This document shows, piece after piece, positions 14,901 to 64,000 of a stretch of DNA of 64,000 nt (the first letter of the stretch is position 1; every line of letters starts with the position of its first letter). A program made the position numbers and the translations under genes. The notes under the pieces are model-generated. The model had not been told where the DNA came from and made no database searches. It worked only from the letters and a program-made list of their open reading frames with translations. Source of the DNA: Mesaphorura yosii (lineage: Eukaryota > Arthropoda > Collembola > Poduromorpha > Tullbergiidae); contig WIXG01000314.1 in the NCBI GenBank assembly GCA_009869945.1, positions 28,994 to 92,993 of the forward strand. Reading direction: 5' to 3'.

Positions 14901-15514
14901 CGTGTTGTAAGAGTCAAGTGCTCAATTTCTATTTCCAAATGGTTGCCATTTGCGAATTGCCAATGCCACATTAGATTGGAGGCTTTTGTACACGTGATGA
15001 GCAGCCTAGCCGGCGTGGCATGACATTCCAAACCTGTCTCAATTCATTTGGCTGGTCGGTCGGTCGATTGACACTCATAAAAACTGAAATTCCAACACAG
15101 ATGTAGACATAAAAAGTTGTTTAATAAAGCTGCCGGCTCAGCCAAGCACTAGCGTTAGTATATGTAAATGTGAGCCAGGCTGTGCTATACGTATCATTCA
15201 GCACTTCAACATCGGTCTCAAACCGCACGCACTTAATCAGTGCTAGCTGGAGCAACGCTTCCCTTCCACAATTTGTCTCCATTTGACAGTTGGATTTCAG
15301 TTAGCCACGTCGTCGTCGCACTTGCTTGCAGGCAGGCAGACACTTTGTCTCACATTTGCGTTTTGCGTTCCCGACAATAGCGTTCAGGCTGTAGGTTCCA
15401 AATTCCGCAAATTTTTCATACTTCTTGATTTTGCTGTACATTCTGTTCAGTTCTTAATATTCAATTTGTTTTATTTTCATTTGCTTGTGTTAAATCAGTG
15501 TGTTTCCTTTTCCA
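8977..15514. other. 6.5 kb region without convincing coding exons
   Basis: This holds the calpain upstream region and the upstream or first-intron region of the desaturase at 15522. ORFs up to 140 codons show no family motif or splice support. Possible 5' non-coding exons end at good plus-strand donors: TTCAG|GTAAGC at 10391, CTG|GTAAGT at 10770 (with TATAAG at 10682 upstream) and TTCAG|GTAAAT at 14637. The desaturase has an acceptor just before its ATG, so at least one 5' exon must lie in this stretch. CTG triplet runs occur near 14410 and 14515. Confidence 0.4.
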
Positions 15515-15521
15515 GAACAAA

Positions 15522-16947
15522 ATGCCACCGATTCCAACTGAAAGCGCCGAAATCGTGCTTCGCAAGTCGGCCACCGTCACTCGGCGTGTTGAGCGTCAGG
15601 AAACTGATGCTCCTGCAAACAACAACAATCACAGCATTACGAGCGTCAAAAGCAAGCGAATTCCAAAGGTGATTCCACACAATGATCTCAGCGCTGTCGA
15701 CACCGAGGAGTTTAAGCAAGACTACGAAGCTAGTTTTAAGCCACCAACTTTTACCATTAAGGAGTTGAGGGATTGTATCCCACCGCATCTCTTTGAGAAG
15801 AATGTGCTCAAGTCATCAGCGTATGTTTTAATCAACTTGGCAATCGTCGCGGCGCTATTCTACGCTGCTACTTTTATCCAATACTTTCCGAAATCTGTGG
15901 CCTTCTTACTCTGGGCTGGATGGTGGTGGCTGCAAGGAGTGGCGATGACCGGTAAGCTGAAATACTTAAAATAAGCCAATCGCCAATGATGAGTTTGCTG
16001 ATGATCTTATCTGGCTTCAGGAGTTTGGGTTCTGGCTCACGAATGTGGACATCAAGCATTCTCCGACTCCAAGACTATCAACAACACCGTTGGCTTCATT
16101 CTCCACACTGCGCTTCTGGTGCCGTACCATCCGTGGCGCATTACCCACGCCCAACATCATGCCTCTACTGCTCACATCGGGCAAGACCAAGTCTTTGTCC
16201 CGAAACGACGCGCAGAAGTGCGTCCGTCTGAAAAGAAGCACTCGGCATGGGAAGAAGCGTGGGAGACAAGTCCCATTTATGCCTTCATCACCGTCATGAC
16301 GTATCTGCTCTTTGGATGGCCTGCTTATCTCTTTGCTCACAAATCAGGACAGCGATACGCACAACAAGCAAATCATTTCAATCCGTCCGCGCCGATTTTC
16401 GAGAAACGGCACTACTTTCAAGTCCTGGCGTCAGACGCTGGTCTTCTGGTCATGCTTGGATTACTGGGCTACTTTTCGTACGCCACCTCATTCTGGACTG
16501 TGATGAAATACTATGGAATTCCATACTTGTGGGTCAATGCTTGGTTGGTGACCATCACTCTGCTTCAGCACACTGACGTCTACTTGCCCCATTACTCTGC
16601 AAACTCATGGAATTTCGTGCGTGGTGCTCTTACGACTGTTGACCGTGATTACGGGTGGTTTCTGAATCATGGTAAAATCAATACTTTGCCAGTAAATTGT
16701 ACAGCCTTAAATATTTTGTTTTCACCATTTAGCTCTCCATCACATTCAAGACAGTCACGTGGCGCATCACCTCTTCTCTCAGATGCCACACTACAATGCA
16801 ATCAAAGCAACTCCGTATCTGAAGGAGAAACTTGGAGACTGTTACCTGTATGACAGAACGCCGGTTTGGAAGTCGCTGCTTCGGGTGGCGAAGAACTGTG
16901 TATTTGTGGAGGACAATGGTGATGTGCTCTTCTACAGGAACAAATAG
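15522..16947 (+). CDS. FAD2-like membrane fatty-acid desaturase, copy 1 (431 aa)
   Basis: By family this is a di-iron acyl desaturase of the ER membrane, of the methyl-end (Delta12/omega) type rather than the Delta9 acyl-CoA type. Exons are 15522-15951, 16021-16671 and 16733-16947; introns are 69 and 61 bp, both phase 1. The three His boxes are HECGH (150-154), HAQHH (186-190) and HVAHH (369-373). The context ([27 protein letters not shown]) is very close to plant and fungal FAD2. Hydrophobic spans lie at about 100-140 and 235-310. The ATG sits seven bases after a CCTTTTCCAG acceptor, so a 5' UTR exon lies upstream. It is paralogous to the gene at 22719 with different intron positions. Double-bond position cannot be read from sequence. 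Confidence 0.9.
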
Positions 16948-19141: not shown

Positions 19142-21913
19142 TCACAAAATATGAAGCGTCTTTTTAAGTTCTACAATCAAATGCCAGTCGGCCTTCTCCA
19201 AATCGTCTCGGAAGTACTCCTTACATACGTCAATTGACTCGCGTGAAATCTGTGAGATCAGCATGTCAGTATCCTGAAAATGGCGACCCAACGCTTTCGG
19301 AGACTCCCCAGGCGCCGGTTCGATTTTGATGCAAATTTCTTGGCCCTTGCGGGCGCAGTCGACGGCTTTGTGCTTGGATTCGATGCTCCCAACGCGGCCG
19401 ATGTCCAGAACTTGGCTGCCGTCCCCAGAGTTGCAGTTGACCACGCAAAGCGGGGTTCCAACGTGAAGCGAGCCGGCCTCCACGTTGACACCGATGATGA
19501 TCGGGTCACGAGTCTTGAAGATGTACTCAGGCAGTATCTTGAGTTTGCACGGATAGACGACCAAGTGCTTGTATTCATTCCGTTGCTTCAGCTTCAGTTC
19601 CTCGCAGTAGGCAGTGAATTGGTCGAAAAGATGGTAGATAATGTCGGCGTGAAAGATCCGGACTCCGAAGTTGTCGGCCATCTCTTGCGCGTCCTTTTCG
19701 ATCTTTACGTCGAAGGCCAAGATAGCGGCGTATTTGCTTTCGTGTTCCAGCATGATTGAGGCTTTCATTACATCTTTGCGCACGACGGGGCCGATCTTGA
19801 CTCCGGCGAACGGGATTTTTGATGTGCTGAGGAACTCAAGGAGAGCCTCCAGGGAGCCCAGTGTGGAGGCTTGGACGTAAACTCCTCGTTCTTGCAGCCG
19901 AATCGAATGCAGAGCGGACTTCAATTCCTTTGCGACTTCCTCCTTGCATATTTCTACCTCGTCAGCATAATGAGCAACCAGGATGTTAAACCCCGCGATT
20001 GCCTTTTCCAAATCCTTAGCCGCCAGCTTGACCCCAATCGCACCGTTGATTTGTTTGTACTCAATGTATGGGTTCTTGACTCGCATTTCTTTCATCGGAT
20101 GCGGTGTGAGAAGAGAGCGAATCTGGGTCACGATTGGTCCGTCAGTGCCAGCCAACACCAAAGTTTGTCCTTCCGCCAACATCCCGTTCAGCAGGACCAC
20201 ATCGATTGTTGTACCAAGCCCGGGGATCTGCTTCACCTCCAAAACGGTCGCCAGAAGCTCCTTGGAGTACATGAGCCGTTTCGCAAGCATCGTTTGCGAA
20301 AGTTCCACGATCAAAGCGATCAGGTTCCACATGCCTTCGCCCGCAACGGCGCTTGTTGGCACCATCGTCACGAACGTCTTCGGATCTGGATTCTTGCCAT
20401 GCAGTGCAACGTTCAGTCCTTGCAGTGCAAATTGAGCAATAATTTCATTCGTCTTCTTCTCGAACTGTGCCAGGGTTGATTCTCTTTGACTCTTCACAAC
20501 TTCACAAATATCTCTTGTTGCACCACCAGTCGAATTCCATTCGTAAATGCGATCGATCTTGTTCAAGGCCACGATGAATGGAGTTTTCCTGTTTTTTAGC
20601 AAATTGATTGACTCGATTGTTTGTTGCTCCAATCCATGCATTATGTCGACTACAAGAATTGCAATATCACAGAGTGAGGATCCACGAGATCGCAAATTGC
20701 CGAATGACTCATGGCCAGGAGTGTCGATCAGGAGCAAACCAGGCAGTTTCACATCGAGAGTCGCAAATCCTTTTACAAAGCTCGCTTGTTCCTTAATGAC
20801 TTCAATTGGCACGTTAGTGGCACCGATTTGTTGCGTGATACCTCCAGCTTCACCATCCTGAACGTGAGTTCTTCGAAGTTTGTCCAAAATCTTCGTCTTC
20901 CCGGTGTCCACATGGCCAAGGACACAAACAACGGGCGCTCGAAGCTGATCCGCTGACCTCTCTTTTTCGTTTTCTTCTCGACGAAGTTGGATTCGGCTCA
21001 GAGCTCGCTCTCTCTTTGATTCTCCTTGCTCAAACTCATCGGTGCTGCACGTGCTGCTCACTGAGATTGAATTTCTTGCCCTGATGCCACCAAGTGTTCC
21101 ATTGACAGATCGGCCGGAGGTACCACTTGAGTTTCGACGCTTCTTCGTCTGGAAGGCAACTCCGTTCCACTGCCCCATAATTGGCTCTTTTTTTATTTGG
21201 TCCCAAGTAGTAACGACTTCGTCCTTGATTTCTTCGTTCTTCCCACTGACTTCACAATCCCCAGCTCCGGTCTTCAACTGGGACGTTGAGTCGGCTTCCG
21301 CTGCCTGGTTTCCCTCCATCGAGTTGCTACTGGATTCGCTGGAATCAGGCGGGTTATTAGCTTCACTCGCACTATTCTTCTTTGTGCGAACTCGGGTCCC
21401 CAATCTCGGTGGCTTCCTTTCGCCAACATTGACAGTTTCGGTTGGCAATGTCGCACCTTGAATCTTCATTGCCTGCAGCATTTCTTCCGTTCGCTGTTTA
21501 GCAAGTGTCAACTTTTCCTTTTGCTTCTGCGTCAAGAATTTACCCTCGGCTTTCAGTCTTTCCTTCTTCTCTTTCTCCTTCAGCTTCTTTCGCTCCTTTT
21601 TCTCTTGCTCTAATCGTAGCTTCTCCAATTTCGCCGTCTCAGCCTCCTCCAGACGCTTCAGCTTCTCATCCTCCTCTTTTAACTGCCTCTCCTCTTCTGC
21701 TTTAACTTTCTGAATTGCTTCTTGAAGGGCAGCAATTCTCTTCTTGCTTGGTCCTTTGCGAGGGTCTTTCTTCTTGTCGGCTGCACCTTTGTGTCCATCT
21801 TTATTGCCAGAAGCCTTATCGGGTTTTTTCTTGTTCTTTGTCTTTGGAACCGTTGTTATCGTCCCAGAATTTGTTTCCAGTTGGACAGTTCCGTTCTCCT
21901 CGGCTACTTCCAT
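19142..21913 (-). CDS. eIF5B: Translation initiation factor eIF5B, intronless (923 aa)
   Basis: This is a cytosolic GTPase that joins the 60S subunit to the initiation complex. One uninterrupted reading frame runs from ATG at 21913. Residues 1-180 are a Lys/Glu-rich coiled region, shorter than in vertebrate eIF5B (about 1,220 aa in total). Ser-rich linkers follow. GTPase motifs are intact: G1 GHVDTGKT (333-340), then GGITQQIGAT, G3 DTPGHESF and G4 NKIDRIYEW. The C-terminal domain carries PGESPKALGRHF and ends in an acidic, Trp-containing helix (EKADWHLIVELKK). A GTAAGT donor at 22027 (minus) suggests a 5' UTR intron. The absence of any coding intron is odd beside intron-rich neighbours and raises the possibility of a retrocopy, though nothing looks decayed. 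Confidence 0.95.
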   Translation of the reverse strand: MEVAEENGTVQLETNSGTITTVPKTKNKKKPDKASGNKDGHKGAADKKKDPRKGPSKKRIAALQEAIQKVKAEEERQLKEEDEKLKRLEEAETAKLEKLRLEQEKKERKKLKEKEKKERLKAEGKFLTQKQKEKLTLAKQRTEEMLQAMKIQGATLPTETVNVGERKPPRLGTRVRTKKNSASEANNPPDSSESSSNSMEGNQAAEADSTSQLKTGAGDCEVSGKNEEIKDEVVTTWDQIKKEPIMGQWNGVAFQTKKRRNSSGTSGRSVNGTLGGIRARNSISVSSTCSTDEFEQGESKRERALSRIQLRREENEKERSADQLRAPVVCVLGHVDTGKTKILDKLRRTHVQDGEAGGITQQIGATNVPIEVIKEQASFVKGFATLDVKLPGLLLIDTPGHESFGNLRSRGSSLCDIAILVVDIMHGLEQQTIESINLLKNRKTPFIVALNKIDRIYEWNSTGGATRDICEVVKSQRESTLAQFEKKTNEIIAQFALQGLNVALHGKNPDPKTFVTMVPTSAVAGEGMWNLIALIVELSQTMLAKRLMYSKELLATVLEVKQIPGLGTTIDVVLLNGMLAEGQTLVLAGTDGPIVTQIRSLLTPHPMKEMRVKNPYIEYKQINGAIGVKLAAKDLEKAIAGFNILVAHYADEVEICKEEVAKELKSALHSIRLQERGVYVQASTLGSLEALLEFLSTSKIPFAGVKIGPVVRKDVMKASIMLEHESKYAAILAFDVKIEKDAQEMADNFGVRIFHADIIYHLFDQFTAYCEELKLKQRNEYKHLVVYPCKLKILPEYIFKTRDPIIIGVNVEAGSLHVGTPLCVVNCNSGDGSQVLDIGRVGSIESKHKAVDCARKGQEICIKIEPAPGESPKALGRHFQDTDMLISQISRESIDVCKEYFRDDLEKADWHLIVELKKTLHIL

Positions 21914-22718
21914 TGATCAGTTGTTAGCTTAGTTGTTTCTTTCCTTCACGATCAAAGCACGCCGAGTTAGTGGATGAAATAAGGTTTTTGGCTTTGGCTT
22001 GTCTATGGATTATGAATATGAACTTACAGATAGAGTTCACGCCACGAAACCCCACAAACCAAACCACTCGCTGCCTGCACTTCCACTCCAGCACTCCAGG
22101 GTATGTGTTATACAACGAACTGGCGTAATTTCATATCAGGCAAGCTGGTCGCAGACCTACCCAGAATAATTCGTGATTTAATTCGATTGGATAGGCAATG
22201 CTCGTATATTTTTGCTTCCGTTTCCACTTCACTTCCGCTCACCTTTGACGCTCCAGGCTCCAGGTTGCGCCTTCTTAGGCTGATGCTGATTACAATTTGC
22301 TGAAAGTTTCAGCAGATCATTCTTGTCGGGAAATAACGTGCTGTACTTAAGCTTTATGATTTATGAACTGTGCTTTCACTCGCAAACGTAGGAAAAGTTA
22401 ACAACACACAGTTAGTCACAATACGTTAATACCATTGATTCGTCAACGTTCACAGGTACTGCTTGATTGATTCAGCCATACGATCCGAATACGACGGATT
22501 ATAAAGGTACGATTTGGTTACGAATTACGAATGGCTGTTACGTAAATAAATACATGCCGACAAAAAATGAAAACAACATTACGACCACAAGACCACATGC
22601 ACAGCTCTTTCACACATGCGCTCGAACTCTGCTGCGTAAATGTCGAATGCGTCCGTCCTTGAAAGCCTCTTTGTTCCATTGGCTAATTTCCGGATCCCTT
22701 TTGTTATTGCAGAGCGAT
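21914..22718. other. Divergent promoter region between eIF5B and desaturase copy 2
   Basis: About 800 bases between two head-to-head genes. There is a minus-strand donor at 22027 and a plus-strand acceptor (TTATTGCAG) at 22712, six bases before the desaturase ATG. Both genes therefore probably have 5' UTR introns here. I see no TATA box for either. Confidence 0.45.
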
Positions 22719-24167
22719 ATGGCCCCAACCCCGACGGAAATCACGGAGGAAGTCAAGGTCACACTCCGTCCAAGTGCCGCTGCGGCCCTTAATGGCAGTC
22801 CCAATGGCCTGAAAACCAGAGCCAGCACCACAACGGTCAATGGAACGAAACCTGTTGCAGGGAGAAAGAGCCGGCCCCCCCTGAACGACGTGCAAAAAGT
22901 GATCCAGAAGGTTGAATACCTCGAGGAGTACGAAAAGATCTACGAACCACCAGAATTCTCGATTAAAGAGCTCCGGAATGCTGTGCCGGCGCACTTGTTC
23001 GAGAAAAGTCTCTTCAAATCCAGCATGTACACGATTGTCAATCTTGTTGCGATTGCGGCGATGTTCTATGCGGCGACCTTCATCGACTACTTGCCATTCA
23101 GCCTGAGAATCATTGCCTGGCCGGTGTATTGGTGGTTCCAAGGTAATTTGTACTCTTCACATTATATTTTACGAATCATAGCATATAATGCTTAAAGTCT
23201 TTTCCGTCCAGGCGTGGGTGGAGTGGGAATTTGGATCCTGGCTCATGAATGCGGGCATCAATCCTTCTCGGACTCGAAGACAATCAACAACACGGCTGGA
23301 TTCTTTCTTCACACGCTCGTGCTGGTACCGTACCACTCCTGGCGGATCTCACATTCCCAGCATCACGCATCCACCGCTAACATGAATGGGGATCAAGCTT
23401 ACGTGCCACGAACTAGATCTGAATATAAGACATGGGGAGATCCGCCCAGTGCATGGGCAGAGGCGATTGAGTCCACTCCGATCTTCGCGTTTGTGACAAT
23501 AGTTGGCATGCTCTTGTTTGGATGGCCGGCGTACTTCTTCGTAAGCATTGCTAAATTAAAGTGCATTGACGCACAGCCGTTTAATCATTTAATGCCTTGA
23601 CCTTGTTTACAGACCAACATGTCTGGCCAAAGCTATCCTGGTCGATGGACGACCCATTTCCACCCATCTTCTCCCATCTTTCAGGAACGGCACAGATACC
23701 AGGTGCTTGCCTCGGACCTCGGCATACTCTGCTGGCTGGGACTGCTCTTCTGGTGGGGACAAGAGACCTCTTTCTGGACAGTGACCAAGTACTACGGGAT
23801 CCCGTACTTGATTGTGAACGCCTGGCTCGTCATCATAACGTTTCTGCAGCACACTGACGTGTACTTGCCCCACTACTCGGATAAGTCCTGGAACTTCGTG
23901 CGTGGAGCCTTGGCCACCGTGGACCGGGATTACGGGTGGTTTCTGAATCATGCCTTTCATCACATTCATGACAGCCACGTAGCTCACCATCTCTTCTCCC
24001 AAATGCCATTCTACAACGCGATCAAGGCGACGCCGTATCTGAAGGCATACCTGGGCGAGTACTACTTCTATGACCAGACTCCGGTCTGGAAGGCCATGTG
24101 GAGAGCAGTGCGGAGGTGTCGGTACGTCGAGAATGAGGGCGACGTACTTTTCTACCACCAGAAGTAA
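22719..24167 (+). CDS. FAD2-like membrane fatty-acid desaturase, copy 2 (435 aa)
   Basis: Same family and likely role as copy 1. Exons are 22719-23142, 23212-23540 and 23613-24167; the introns are 69 bp (phase 1) and 72 bp (phase 0). His boxes are HECGH (153-157), HSQHH (189-193) and HVAHH (373-377). Shared blocks include [29 protein letters not shown] and [12 protein letters not shown]. The first intron matches copy 1 in position and phase. The second (after WPAYFF) is absent from copy 1, and copy 1's second intron (after FLNH) is absent here. The N-terminal 65 residues differ and are Thr/Ala/Pro-rich. Third codon positions are GC-rich, which also creates a long antisense ORF. Confidence 0.92.
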
Positions 24168-52826: not shown

Positions 52827-55804
52827 ATGATCTTCAGCTCTAAGTCCCGGAGATGGAGATTTCACCTCTTGATTGTCTCCGTCTTCGTATTGCAAGAATC
52901 TCTCCCAGCATTCGCCACCGCGACCCCTGCTAAGTCAGAAGCTGCTGAAGCCGATGCAGATTCCATTGCAAGTGCCACTTCCACCTTCGAAAAGACATCA
53001 GCCGCTTCGCCTGCTTCAACTTCCACGTCCAGCTCCAGTTCGCCAGCAAAACCTCGAAAGACTCGACATCAGAATTTCTACAACTACCGCACAGACGACG
53101 ATCGCTCGTACGCGTATTTTGAGGGTGACACGGCTGGCAACTACGTTTCCGACTTTGGCCTGCGGACCAACCGCCCCAGCGCGCGAGTCAGCAATCCCTT
53201 TGAGATTTTTGGATCTGGTCGAAGCGGTGGATCGAGTACAAGTGATGGGAGTCGAAGTCGAAGCAGGTACGACGAAGTCGACGACGACTACTTGTTTATG
53301 GACAACGGTGGTGAAGGTACTCTTGACGACGGAGTTGGAGGAGTCGCAGACGATTATGACGACTACCAAGATCAACAGCAGTATCTAGACGACCCGCCAG
53401 CCGAAGGAAGAAGATACGACGGTCGAAGAACTCGAATCCGCATTCGTCCGTCCGTCAGCAGCAGCAGCGGTGGTGCAGGCTGGTCGGGAAACACGCACCT
53501 GACCACGTCCCGCGGTCCCAACGACGCGTCCTACTCATTTGGGTACAGTGCTCTCGATCACTCTAGATATGAATATTCCGATCCATTTGGCAATGTGATT
53601 GGCTATTACTCGTACATTGATGATGATGGACTTTTACGTCATGTTAGCTACACGGCTGGAGCTGGTACTGGATTTGTTGTTAATCAGAATAGAGTCTCGC
53701 ACTACCCACACCGAATTCGACCTGCCATCCCCACGTCGCCGTTGCCACCACCGCGCGGCAGTGGCGTGAAGGTCACGGTCGGCGGAAGTGGAAGTAGCTG
53801 GGCGGGCGAAGAGGAAGAAGACATTTATCATTCTTACGGTCATCGAATTCCTCAACAAGGCGTTTGGCAGCCCCCAAGAAGAAGAAAGCCAAGTTATGTG
53901 GTCAAGATCAGGCGGCCCGTGAAGCCAGAGTCTCCAGGTACCAATCTAACTCATTGAGAAAGTTTGAATCTCTTTCGTCTGCGCTATCCAGAACCGGATC
54001 CTCTTTTCTCTTTCTCTTCCTCTTTCTACAAACAATATTTAAGTTTAATTGTCCGGTTCTCCTCCTTCTCACTTTCCTGTTCGAACTTACGACATTCAAA
54101 TCTCTCGTGAAGTTTTTATGTATTATTATATTCCCATGTCTCCAGCATGGATTTACTATCGCCCGCCTAATCCAGGTCGGCCCACACCTGGAAACAGAAG
54201 ACGACCGAACCCGTCCAGAAGACCCACCACACCCACAAAAGTGTACCCAGATGAAGATTTGGGAGGTGGTGGCGGTGGATGGTCCGAGTCAGACTTGTCA
54301 GAATCGCCGTACCCGAAAGACGCGTCCTACCACTTTGCATACGATGCTGGCGACCACAACCGGAATGAATACTCGGACCCGTGGGGCAATGTGAGAGGCT
54401 CGTACTCGTACATCGACCCAAGTGGAATTCGGCGTACGGTCCATTATTCTGCGGGCTCTGTATCGGGATTCAAGATCCTCAGTGCATCACCGTCCCAAAT
54501 TGTACAACGCGTGTATCCGGGCCCAATTTCCAAGATTCGACCCAAGCCGTCAGCTTTCGTGTACCATTTGCATCCCGACAGCGGTAAGTAACTACACAAT
54601 TACTCAATTTTCTTCGTGAGTTCTCTCTACTTGAGCTCATGCATGGCATGGCTCTCTTGTTTCAGGTTGGAAGCCATGGGAAGCCTCCGAAACGAGCATC
54701 ATCGGGCAGCAACGACCTCGTGCAAGACCGCTAAAGACAAATCACAACAACGTCGCAACCTCGTATCAGTATCAGAGTTTTGGGAAAGCCGATGACATTT
54801 CCTCAGAAGACTCCAACGTGAACGTGAATACCGAGCATAGCAATACGCGAAAGCCTGTGACCAGTTCAATTACAAACGACGACGGTCAAGGACAAGAAAA
54901 GGTCGTCAGACACCGTGGCAGGCAAGGGTCTCGCCACAGAACCAGCCAGCTGCAGCAGTACCACCGCCAAGTTCCGGTGAAGGACGACACGGAACAGATT
55001 TACGAACAAGAGTATGGCACGGGTGACGATCAGTACGGCGATGACGAGTACCAAATCGTGGCCGATACAAAGTACGAGCCACTCAAGACGAACACAAACA
55101 CGGAGAACGGGAAGATCATGATCCAGAGCTACAAAGGAGGGTATGGCGACAAGAATCCATTGCTTGTCATGTCCGAGAGCTCTGCACGTCCACGCGAGAG
55201 CTCCAGCAGCATGAAGGACGGGAAGCAGGTCGAGCAGGAGACCACGACCAGTCGCCCAATCAGTGTGGCTCGAATGATGTCCATGCGCATGTCAAAATCC
55301 CGCAAGATGATGAAAATGATGAAGAACAAGAGCAGCATGGCCATGGTGAAAAGCATTAACGAGGCGAGTGCCAACATGCGGCGTCGTAACAGCAAAATGA
55401 ACCAGCAGTCTGAAGCTTCAGCGTCCTCGCCCTCGTCCACGTCCGCGGGTTCATCCAGAATGATGCACGTGAACAACATGAACAACGTGAGAATGAATCT
55501 GGACAGCCACCATAGCAGTTCTAGCGTGTCCCAAAGTCAGAGTTACCCGCATGACGACGAGGACGAGGTGCAGGTTCAGTCGCCACCACTGTCGCGACAA
55601 ATGTCCGTTATGATTCCTGACCGAAGACTCGCGCACTATCCAAAGAGCACCAGTGGGCAATACAGCAACGGCGGTGGGAACGGGATTGGCGACGACATGG
55701 TGCAAAGTTACAACGGGCGAATGATGCTGCTCGTTCCGATGCCTATGCAGATGCAGATGCGAGGAAACACGAGACCTCAGATGCATTTTCCACTACTTTA
55801 TTAG
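52827..55804 (+). CDS. Large secreted cuticle-like protein with two RR-type domains and Met-rich tail (895 aa)
   Basis: Probably a structural extracellular protein of cuticle. Exons are 52827-53937, 54146-54583 and 54666-55804; both introns are phase 1. A signal peptide (FHLLIVSVFVLQESLPAFA) is followed by a Ser/Ala/Thr-rich segment and an Asp-rich low-complexity part. Two RR-2-like chitin-binding repeats follow, at about 233-290 (DASYSFGYSALDHSRYEYSD) and 429-485 (DASYHFAYDAGDHNRNEYSD). Each continues with GNV-G-YSYID--G--R-V-Y-AG---GF. The first is in exon 1 and the second fills exon 2, so exon shuffling or duplication is likely. The third exon encodes about 380 hydrophilic residues with Met-rich clusters (from about 720). 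RR proteins are usually 100-300 aa, so the length is unusual. The two-domain join rests on clean splice sites and phase. Confidence 0.8.
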
Positions 55805-61141: not shown

Positions 61142-61749
61142 CTATTTCTCTTGCACAAGTGGGACTTCTTCCTTTTTTAGTCTTTCGATAATTAGCTCCG
61201 CAATCGCTCGCTGCGTGCGCCTTTCTAGCTTCTCCAATTTGCCAGCCACGTCCCTCTTTAGATCCCAGTCTGGCTTTCTAGGTGCGAGGTTCGTCAGGTC
61301 CTGAAATCAAAATCAAGAACATTTTAAATATAATGCGAGTTGAATGGTATTGTAAAAACCCAGTGTAACTTACCACATCATCCAGCAGGGACTGGACCTT
61401 TCCCTGCTCGAGCGTATCACTGATTTGGGGTTCAATGGAGATTGGAGTGGCGGAGGCTGGGGCTACTTCCTGGAGTGCGGGCGTCTGCGGGTTGTACGAA
61501 CGGAAATGCGGGCTAAGGAACAGAACAAACTCATTAGTATAGTATCAAAGTCATTTAGTGAATAGAAACTACAAATTAATAGACTAACCTCGGTAACTCA
61601 GCTCCTTTCACCCTGGCACTCTTCACCCCATCACTCGGTTCCTGCACTTGCAGTTTGTTCCGGAGGGCCAGGAGTCTTTCTTTCCTCTTCCGTGCCTCGT
61701 CTTCAAGCTGGCCGACGACCGGAGTTTCCTGATCGTTTGTGGTGGACAT
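61142..61749 (-). CDS. CCDC12: CCDC12 (Cwf18-like) spliceosome-associated protein (152 aa)
   Basis: A nuclear protein known from spliceosome complexes (Cwf18 in fission yeast). Exons are 61749-61589, 61512-61374 and 61300-61142; introns are 76 and 73 bp, all in phase. The N-terminus is a charged helix (LEDEARKRKERLLALRNKL). The middle has the SYNPQTP stretch. The diagnostic C-terminal block is DLTNLAPRKPDWDLKRDVAG followed by KLEKLERRTQRAIAELI, almost identical to the human protein. The length (152) is close to the human 166. The ATG is the first in the frame after in-frame stops. Confidence 0.95.
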
Positions 61750-62139: not shown

Positions 62140-62794
62140 ATGCCACAAGGAGATGGCGGGCGTTCTCCATCTCCGCGTTCAGGTCCATCATGGTCATCGG
62201 CTCGACTCGCACCGAGGTTGTATTGCATTTCCATTGATTTATTGTCATTTTAAACTCTTTTCGCCTCACATTGTTCCATCCGCCCGCGCCCACCACCACC
62301 TCCCAACAAACCGTGGGGCCTGGTGAAGCAGGTAGCACGACTGCTGGTGGAGTGGCAGCCGTAAGTGAGACTTACAGATTCCCTTTCGCTGTTTGTCTTG
62401 AAATATGTTCGTAGAAATGACTCATACTTATGGCGATGGCAGGGTTCCCTCATCGCAGGCGCAACCATGGGCCCGCGAGTCGTTGTGGTCGACCAGCAGC
62501 AGTAACAACAGGTGACTAAACCAAGCGCCCTACGTTCGCTAAATTAACATTTGACGCTTTCAGTAAGAGGATCCATGCGGACGGCAAGTGAAGGACCTTC
62601 TCGACTGTATTCAAATGATTCAGCAGACTGGCGAACAGATCTCCGCCTGTGAAGGATTCAGGCTGAAATTGAAGGATTGCAGGCAACAGTATGGTGAATT
62701 GCTATGTCCTGAGACTCCTTGTGAGACCCATTTCCTAATTTTCAGTTGCTGTCATTTTACAGGGGATCCGTACTCTGGAAGAGGTCAAGGCTAG
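62140..62794 (+). pseudogene. CHCHD2/10-like gene with two in-frame TAA codons and a damaged acceptor
   Basis: Exons by phase are 62140-62216, 62270-62360, 62443-62511, 62564-62693 and 62763-62794. CHCHD2/10 proteins are mitochondrial intermembrane-space twin Cx9C proteins. The last two exons encode a perfect CHCH domain: Cys-x9-Cys (CGRQVKDLLDC) and Cys-x9-Cys (CEGFRLKLKDC). Exon 1 gives an Arg/Ser/Pro leader starting MPQGDGGRSPSPRS. Exons 2-3 give TTAGGVAA|GSLIAGATMG, like the family's Gly/Ala helix. In that frame TAA occurs at 62503-62505 and 62564-62566, inside a Gln run (Gln-Gln-Gln-TAA-Gln-Gln-TAA-Glu-Asp). The acceptor before 62270 ends CTCAC rather than CTCAG. AATAAA is at 62873. It is either a duplicated pseudogene or a gene whose true splicing I have missed. 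Confidence 0.65.
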
Positions 62795-62872
62795 CGCACG
62801 ATTCTGAACCCGGTCGACTGTGTCAAGCTGATTGAAAATACTTCACATTACAATTAATAATTGCCCTAACAC

Positions 62873-62878
62873 AATAAA
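62873..62878 (+). promoter_or_regulatory. Polyadenylation signal of CHCHD2/10-like gene
   Basis: AATAAA lies 79 bases after the TAG of the last exon. Confidence 0.6.
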
Positions 62879-63540: not shown

Positions 63541-63827
63541 ATAAAACAAATCAGAAGGTGCGACCTGCATCCACTTAAGGTCAGGATTGTCGGTCCACCA
63601 CAAGTAGAAAGGTCGAAGCATGCGACGAATTCGCAAACATACCGGAAGTAGAAGTCCGGAGGTGCAGTTCGCCACTGGTGGAGTTCGATTCCTGTGCGGT
63701 GGATGTGCATATCTTGCAGGGAGAAGTCATAGTACTGATTCATCGGAATACAGAATTCCAGTTTCGAAAGCTGATAGTCGATTTGGTTGACAGCAAGCAC
63801 AGCAAAATCGCGAAACCGCTGGTGGAT
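63541..63827 (-). CDS. Unidentified gene, terminal part at right window edge
   Basis: A minus-strand exon 63827-63643 has an acceptor (TTTAATAG) and a good donor (CCG|GTATGT). It reads openly, with segments such as QRFRDFAVLAVNQIDYQL and HRTGIELHQWRTAPPDF. A following tail in another frame (WMQVAPSDLFY, stop near 63541) could be the last exon, reached by a donor at TAT|GTTTGC and an acceptor at CTTAAG. AATAAA on the minus strand is at 63496-63501, which suits an end here. A minus-strand AATAAA at about 63950 may end another gene further right. I do not recognise the protein, and the exact join is uncertain. Confidence 0.35.
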
Positions 63828-64000
63828 CTATTAAAGATTTGCTTAGATATATCTAGATGTTAACCGTTGTGAGGTGGAATCGCCACGCTCAAATTGTGTG
63901 ATGTTGAGAATGACAACGACGAACGAAACTGAACTCAAAAGGACTAGAGTTTATTAGCGGACTCTACGGCTCAAAATTGTGAGGCAAAGGGAGACAGAAT

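What the first reader, a model, noticed from the sequence alone, without database searches (positions are those of the whole stretch)
62443..62693. CHCHD2/10-like gene: intact twin Cx9C domain behind two TAA codons in one reading frame
The only frame and phase that links the Gly/Ala-rich helix to the CHCH domain puts TAA at 62503 and 62564. Both lie within a run of CAG/CAA codons, so each is one C-to-T change from CAA. The acceptor of exon 2 also looks one base off (CTCAC instead of CTCAG). Yet the CHCH cysteines, introns and polyadenylation signal are preserved. This suggests a young duplicated pseudogene, an assembly or allele problem, or transcript-level rescue such as alternative splicing.
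Basis: partly seen in the sequence, partly recalled or inferred. Interest (0 to 1): 0.7.

Follow-up and report, generated by a model that had tools for sequence, protein, structure and literature searches.

The report
Broken old duplicate of CHCHD2/10
This looks like the worn-out second copy of a common mitochondrial gene in a small animal genome that keeps an intact version elsewhere; it is an ordinary pseudogene, notable only because its last domain is still well preserved.

Summary
A CHCHD2/10-like gene lies at 62140-62878 on the + strand. It has a complete twin Cx9C domain (cysteines at 62576, 62606, 62648, 62678) and TAA in its frame at 62503 and 62564. The expected acceptor of intron 1 reads CTCAC. 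The window copy is not young. Against C99 its CHCH exon agrees at only 7 of 38 third codon positions, but at 23 of 38 second positions and at all four cysteines, so it probably diverged long ago as a working protein and broke later. The second TAA need not be coding: it sits directly behind the TTTCAG acceptor. No path using only C/T-AG acceptors links the ATG at 62140 to the domain, although shuffled sequence often allows one. The neighbouring CCDC12/cwf18 gene is undamaged, so local sequencing error is unlikely. Verdict: an old, diverged, now inactivated duplicate. Transcript-level rescue is possible only through weak sites.

The parts
62140..62216 (+). exon 1, ATG to a weak phase-2 donor GAG|GTTGTA; MPQGDGGRSPSPRSGPSWSSARLAP plus two bases
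   Evidence: donor 4 of 9 consensus matches; same phase as exon 1 of the intact C99 gene; the sequence match to C99 exon 1 alone is weak
62217..62335 (+). intron 1 region: expected acceptor reads CTCAC (62265-62269); no AG before 62328
62317..62337 (+). GLVKQVA, first half of the conserved helix
   Evidence: best of 127,960 six-frame positions for C99 GLLKQMA
62337..62360 (+). TTAGGVAA, second half of the helix, in a different frame; the intron that lies between these halves in C99 is absent
   Evidence: best of 127,954 positions for C99 ATAGGVAV; C99 exon map
62361..62442 (+). intron, GTAAGT...GGCAG, phase 0 in the helix frame
62443..62511 (+). exon with GSLIAGATMGPRVVVVDQQQ, then TAA, then QQ; 69 bases
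62503..62505 (+). TAA inside the poly-glutamine tract
   Evidence: C99 has a poly-glutamine tract and a donor at the matching place
62512..62563 (+). intron, CAG|GTGACT...TTTCAG
62564..62566 (+). TAA directly behind the TTTCAG acceptor, in the CHCH frame; outside the coding exon if a weak acceptor just downstream is used
62567..62693 (+). CHCH exon, twin Cx9C, cysteines at 62576, 62606, 62648, 62678; modelled as a helical hairpin
62763..62794 (+). possible last exon, DPYSGRGQG and TAG; without splicing the CHCH frame also runs to this TAG
62873..62878 (+). AATAAA polyadenylation signal

Best explanation
The locus is a unique, anciently diverged duplicate of the animal CHCHD2/CHCHD10 (yeast Mix17) gene that has lost its function. 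After duplication it evolved under protein-level constraint: the four cysteines and the frame of the CHCH exon were kept, introns stayed at corresponding places, and the loop between the two Cx9C motifs came to be four residues longer than in the intact gene. Later it took several inactivating changes: no usable acceptor for intron 1, a one-base frame step between the helix halves where an intron is absent, a TAA in the poly-glutamine tract, and a TAA behind the last strong acceptor. Transcripts, if made, should end translation at or before 62503 and be degraded. Shown: the breaks, the intact gene on C99, the large divergence. Inferred: loss of function, decay of transcripts and the order of events.
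For: Intact 140-residue CHCHD2/10 gene elsewhere in the assembly (Pfam CHCH 28.5 bits against a cut-off of 27.2). Helix halves in two frames. Acceptor absent. Two TAA. No path with C/T-AG acceptors from ATG 62140 to the four cysteines, while 126, 113 and 56 of 200 shuffles have one at donor cut-offs 4, 5 and 6. Identity 16, 23 and 7 of 38 at codon positions 1, 2 and 3, permutation p 0.00045. Neighbouring gene intact. No second copy of the gene's DNA found.
Against: The CHCH exon is undamaged and its third-position GC (0.55) equals that of five long ORFs of the window, so the loss is recent or the domain still matters. If any AG acceptor is allowed, continuous paths exist (124 at donor cut-off 5 with up to four introns). 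Exon 1 joined to 62336 bypasses both the missing acceptor and the frame step. No RNA data and no sequence of a related species were available. The constraint argument rests on 38 codons and two sequences, with the gap placed so as to maximise identical residues. The family placement of the window copy on its own is modest: Pfam CHCH below its cut-off, best PDB matches Mia40 at E 0.41, missed by the Pfam-family search of the genome and by the human-like query.
Confidence: 0.83

Rival explanations
1. The locus is still expressed as a short CHCH protein: exon 1 is joined to 62336, the 69-base exon that holds the first TAA is skipped, and a weak acceptor just behind the second TAA (62570) is used. 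The product would lack most of the helix.
For: Such a path gives one open frame through all four cysteines to TAG; the skipped exon is 69 bases, so the frame is kept; the CHCH exon is intact.
Against: It needs unusual choices: a donor at 62217 with 4 of 9 consensus matches, an acceptor at 62336 with 3 of 12 pyrimidines before it, an exon skip, and an acceptor 6 bases behind the TTTCAG one. Paths with any AG acceptor also arise in 137, 118 and 80 of 200 shuffles, so their existence is no evidence.
Confidence: 0.07
2. Sequencing or assembly errors, or a null allele that was assembled, make an intact gene look broken.
For: The gene lies 1.1 to 1.9 kb from the end of contig C314, which stops in a dispersed repeat.
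Against: Breaks of different kinds within about 300 bases (62265-62566), while the adjoining CCDC12/cwf18 gene is intact and a kinesin motor domain in the window matches end to end; no second, allelic copy was found in the assembly.
Confidence: 0.06
3. The stops are read through or recoded, so that a full-length diverged CHCHD2/10 paralogue is made.
For: The first TAA stands inside a glutamine tract.
Against: Does not deal with the frame step or the missing acceptor. The C99 gene ends in TGA and CCDC12 in TAG; two of the five ORFs used as training data end in TAA, which is weak evidence that TAA is an ordinary stop.
Confidence: 0.02

Closest known systems
CHCHD2 (MNRR1) / CHCHD10 / yeast Mix17
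   Same: Layout: basic N-terminus, hydrophobic Gly/Ala helix, poly-glutamine linker, twin Cx9C; a phase-2 intron after exon 1 and an intron behind the poly-glutamine tract, as in the intact C99 gene
   Different: 13 instead of 9 residues between the Cx9C motifs; helix apparently four residues shorter; one intron absent; phase of the intron behind poly-glutamine differs (0 here, 1 in C99); reading frame broken
CHCHD2 pseudogenes of mammals (e.g. human CHCHD2P9; known here from a paper title only)
   Same: A dead copy of the same gene family
   Different: This one keeps introns, so it is not a processed (retrotransposed) copy; that the mammalian ones are processed is recalled, not looked up
Diverged lineage-specific CHCHD2 duplicates such as Drosophila CG31007/CG31008 (recalled; one search listed one paper, unread, whose title is on another gene)
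   Same: An extra, fast-diverged copy beside a canonical gene
   Different: Those are, as I recall, expressed genes; this one is broken

Membership tests
CHCHD2/CHCHD10/Mix17 | twin Cx9C coiled-coil-helix domain at the C-terminus | tested here: met
   C-x9-C twice; two-helix model, mean pLDDT 94.3 from the single sequence. But Pfam CHCH is below its cut-off (18.3 of 27.2 bits)
CHCHD2/CHCHD10/Mix17 | nine residues between the two Cx9C motifs, as in C99 and the recalled human proteins | tested here: not met
   13 residues
CHCHD2/CHCHD10/Mix17 | conserved hydrophobic Gly/Ala helix (in C99 PGLLKQMAATAGGVAVGSAVGH) | tested here: inconclusive
   GLVKQVA and TTAGGVAA recognisable but in different frames; the part matching GHVVGHTLMG did not stand out
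CHCHD2/CHCHD10/Mix17 | one continuous coding sequence | tested here: not met
   TAA, frame step and missing acceptor
duplicated (unprocessed) pseudogene | introns kept, at places shared with an intact copy in the same genome | tested here: met
   intron after exon 1 (phase 2 in both) and intron behind poly-glutamine (phase 0 here, 1 in C99); the intron before GSLI matches the one before GHVV in C99 only if four residues are taken as lost; one intron of C99 is absent
duplicated (unprocessed) pseudogene | no functional product | not testable with these tools
   no RNA or protein data

The most novel reading that the evidence does not exclude
The copy is not dead: alternative splicing through weak sites makes a small twin-Cx9C protein without the membrane helix, a new kind of CHCHD2/10-derived intermembrane-space peptide, whose intact four-cysteine domain is still under selection.
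Probability: 0.07. Interest if true: 0.45.

Novelty: new member of a known kind. Interest (0 to 1): 0.12.

Why it matters
It matters little beyond annotation. A gene caller could report the CHCH exon as a functional CHCHD2/10 gene, while the intact gene of this species is the one on C99. If the short-protein reading were true, it would show a CHCHD2/10 copy being cut down to its disulfide domain.

Tried and rejected
Search of the genome with an alignment was not accepted; single proteins, which the tool does accept, were used instead. Pfam and PDB searches with the CHCH piece gave only weak matches (Pfam CHCH 18.3 of 27.2 bits, Cmc1 13.6 of 22; PDB best Mia40, E 0.41), so family placement rests on the recalled CHCHD2/10 profile, the fly-like query (40% identity over the domain) and the likeness to the intact C99 gene. 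The Pfam CHCH family search of the genome gave three places, on C8, C30 and C99, and missed the window copy; C8 and C30 look to me like COX19 and CHCHD1 (recalled, not tested). A contaminant origin of C99 was considered because the CHCH exon of its gene has low third-position GC (0.23, against 0.55 for the window's CHCH exon and ORFs). It was judged unlikely because the six C99 stretches measured (the 3.1-kb locus L003, two flanks and three more samples, GC 0.40-0.44) fall inside the range of 17 samples from other contigs (0.395-0.53); composition alone does not prove the same organism. Segmental duplication with neighbours was not seen: of the ORFs of at least 50 residues in 19.8 kb around the C99 gene, one matched the window at E 1e-3 or better, at 54340-54462, in an ORF that looks like a cuticle protein (not tested) and is not near the gene; the C99 CHCH exon itself straddled the two fetched pieces and so was not a fair query there. 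A variant genetic code was not pursued, since it would not explain the frame step. Rfam found nothing in the window at gathering thresholds. Alternative starts upstream of 62140 were not enumerated, but any transcript that holds 62564-62566 in the CHCH frame meets the TAA, and no ATG, CTG, GTG or TTG lies in frame between it and the first cysteine. The splice scores are simple consensus counts, not trained on this organism. The organism was not identified; insect-type cuticle, desaturase and kinesin genes in the window and a 93-Mb assembly suggest an arthropod or a close relative.

Full report
The window is the last 64,000 bases of a 92,993-base contig (C314) in a 93-Mb, 1,127-contig assembly. 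Insect-type cuticle protein, fatty acid desaturase, kinesin and initiation-factor genes mark it as an animal nuclear genome, probably an arthropod or a close relative (the taxon is inference). The contig ends in a dispersed repeat: bases from about 63707 on match several other contigs, the gene itself does not.

What is there. From ATG 62140 an exon ends in phase 2 at 62216. Behind it come two stretches that match the conserved Gly/Ala helix of CHCHD2/10, a GTAAGT intron, a 69-base exon with a short hydrophobic stretch and poly-glutamine, a GTGACT...TTTCAG intron, and an exon with two exact Cx9C motifs 13 residues apart; AATAAA stands at 62873. The CHCH exon scores 23.0 bits (E 1.3e-5) against a profile made from four recalled CHCHD2/10 sequences, the only match over the inclusion threshold in the six frames of the window. 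AlphaFold2 on the 43-residue stretch alone gives a helical hairpin with mean pLDDT 94.3; no fold search could be run. Pfam's CHCH model stays below its cut-off at 18.3 of 27.2 bits, and the best PDB sequence match is Mia40 at E 0.41.

The intact gene. A fly-like CHCHD2 query finds an exon on contig C99 (70% identity over 37 residues, E 3.6e-13) and, far weaker, the window copy (40%, E 0.005, with one TAA inside). A human-like query finds C99 only. The C99 gene can be spliced by GT-AG sites into five exons (53, 91, 39, 115 and 125 bases; phases 2, 0, 0, 1) that encode 140 residues without interruption (my model, no RNA evidence), with Pfam CHCH above its cut-off (28.5 of 27.2 bits). No third CHCHD2/10 copy was found; the tool scores only the best candidates, and the Pfam-family search missed the window copy itself, so a distant copy could be missed. 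C99 has the base composition of the rest of the assembly.

The breaks. Taking segments of the C99 protein as queries against all six frames of the window, GLLKQMA is best matched at 62317 (GLVKQVA, 26 against 20 for the runner-up) and ATAGGVAV at 62337 (TTAGGVAA, 29 against 21). These two are neighbours in the protein but lie in different frames here, and the intron that separates them in C99 is absent. Second, the expected acceptor of intron 1 reads CTCAC and no AG occurs before 62328. Third, TAA at 62503 stands in the poly-glutamine tract, which C99 has at the same place: the longest DNA match between the two genes, 25 bases at E 0.076, is this tract with its donor. Fourth, TAA at 62564 stands directly behind the TTTCAG acceptor; relative to C99, where the exon begins inside the aspartate codon two codons before the first cysteine, it may be extra or intronic sequence, so it is a conditional stop.

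Can splicing avoid this? I searched for paths from ATG 62140 to the four cysteines with up to four introns. With C/T-AG acceptors there is none, at donor cut-offs of 4, 5 or 6 of 9 consensus matches, although 126, 113 and 56 of 200 dinucleotide shuffles have one. With any AG acceptor the real sequence has paths, as have 137, 118 and 80 of 200 shuffles; 124 such paths were counted at donor cut-off 5. So ordinary rescue is excluded for this ATG within these limits, and the loose paths carry no evidential weight. The neatest loose path (exon 1 to 62336, skip of the 69-base exon, acceptor at 62570) is kept as a rival.

How old? Over 38 comparable codons of the CHCH exon, the window copy and C99 agree at 16, 23 and 7 of positions 1, 2 and 3 (permutation p 0.00045); 14 residues are identical, only 5 with the same codon. 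The four-codon gap was placed to maximise identical residues, which favours positions 1 and 2 somewhat. Whole-gene DNA comparison finds, besides the 25-base poly-glutamine match, only pieces of 10 to 14 bases. Synonymous change thus looks saturated, while all four cysteines and the open frame remain. A copy that had drifted freely since duplication should not look like this; a copy that worked for long and broke later should. This is inference from one pair of short sequences, and the constraint on C99 contributes to it.

Error or allele? The adjacent divergent gene on the minus strand (61142-61749), a CCDC12/cwf18 homologue, splices into an intact protein of 152 residues (Pfam cwf18 120.1 bits), and the 701-base gene was found once in the assembly. 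Several independent errors confined to this gene are unlikely, though only reads can exclude it.

Known background. [quoted passage not shown] A search for CHCHD2, CHCHD10 and pseudogene returned nine papers, one with the pseudogene CHCHD2P9 in its title (listing only). A diverged and later lost duplicate is an ordinary event. I file the finding as a new member of a known kind, with low interest.

Noticed in passing
61142-61749, minus strand: Intact three-exon CCDC12/cwf18 splicing-factor homologue, divergent from the CHCHD2/10-like copy, start codons about 390 bases apart
   Followed up: yes
63707-64000: The contig ends in a dispersed repeat with 75-100% matches on several other contigs, which probably explains the contig end
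   Followed up: partly
15429-16853 and 22467-24167: Two ORF groups that read like similar fatty acid desaturases (only 16005-16700 was tested), on either side of an eIF5B-like ORF (19142-21916, minus strand)
   Followed up: no
L003 (contig C99): The CHCH exon of the intact CHCHD2/10 gene has low third-position GC (0.23) compared with 0.55 for five long ORFs of the window and for the CHCH exon of the broken copy
   Followed up: partly
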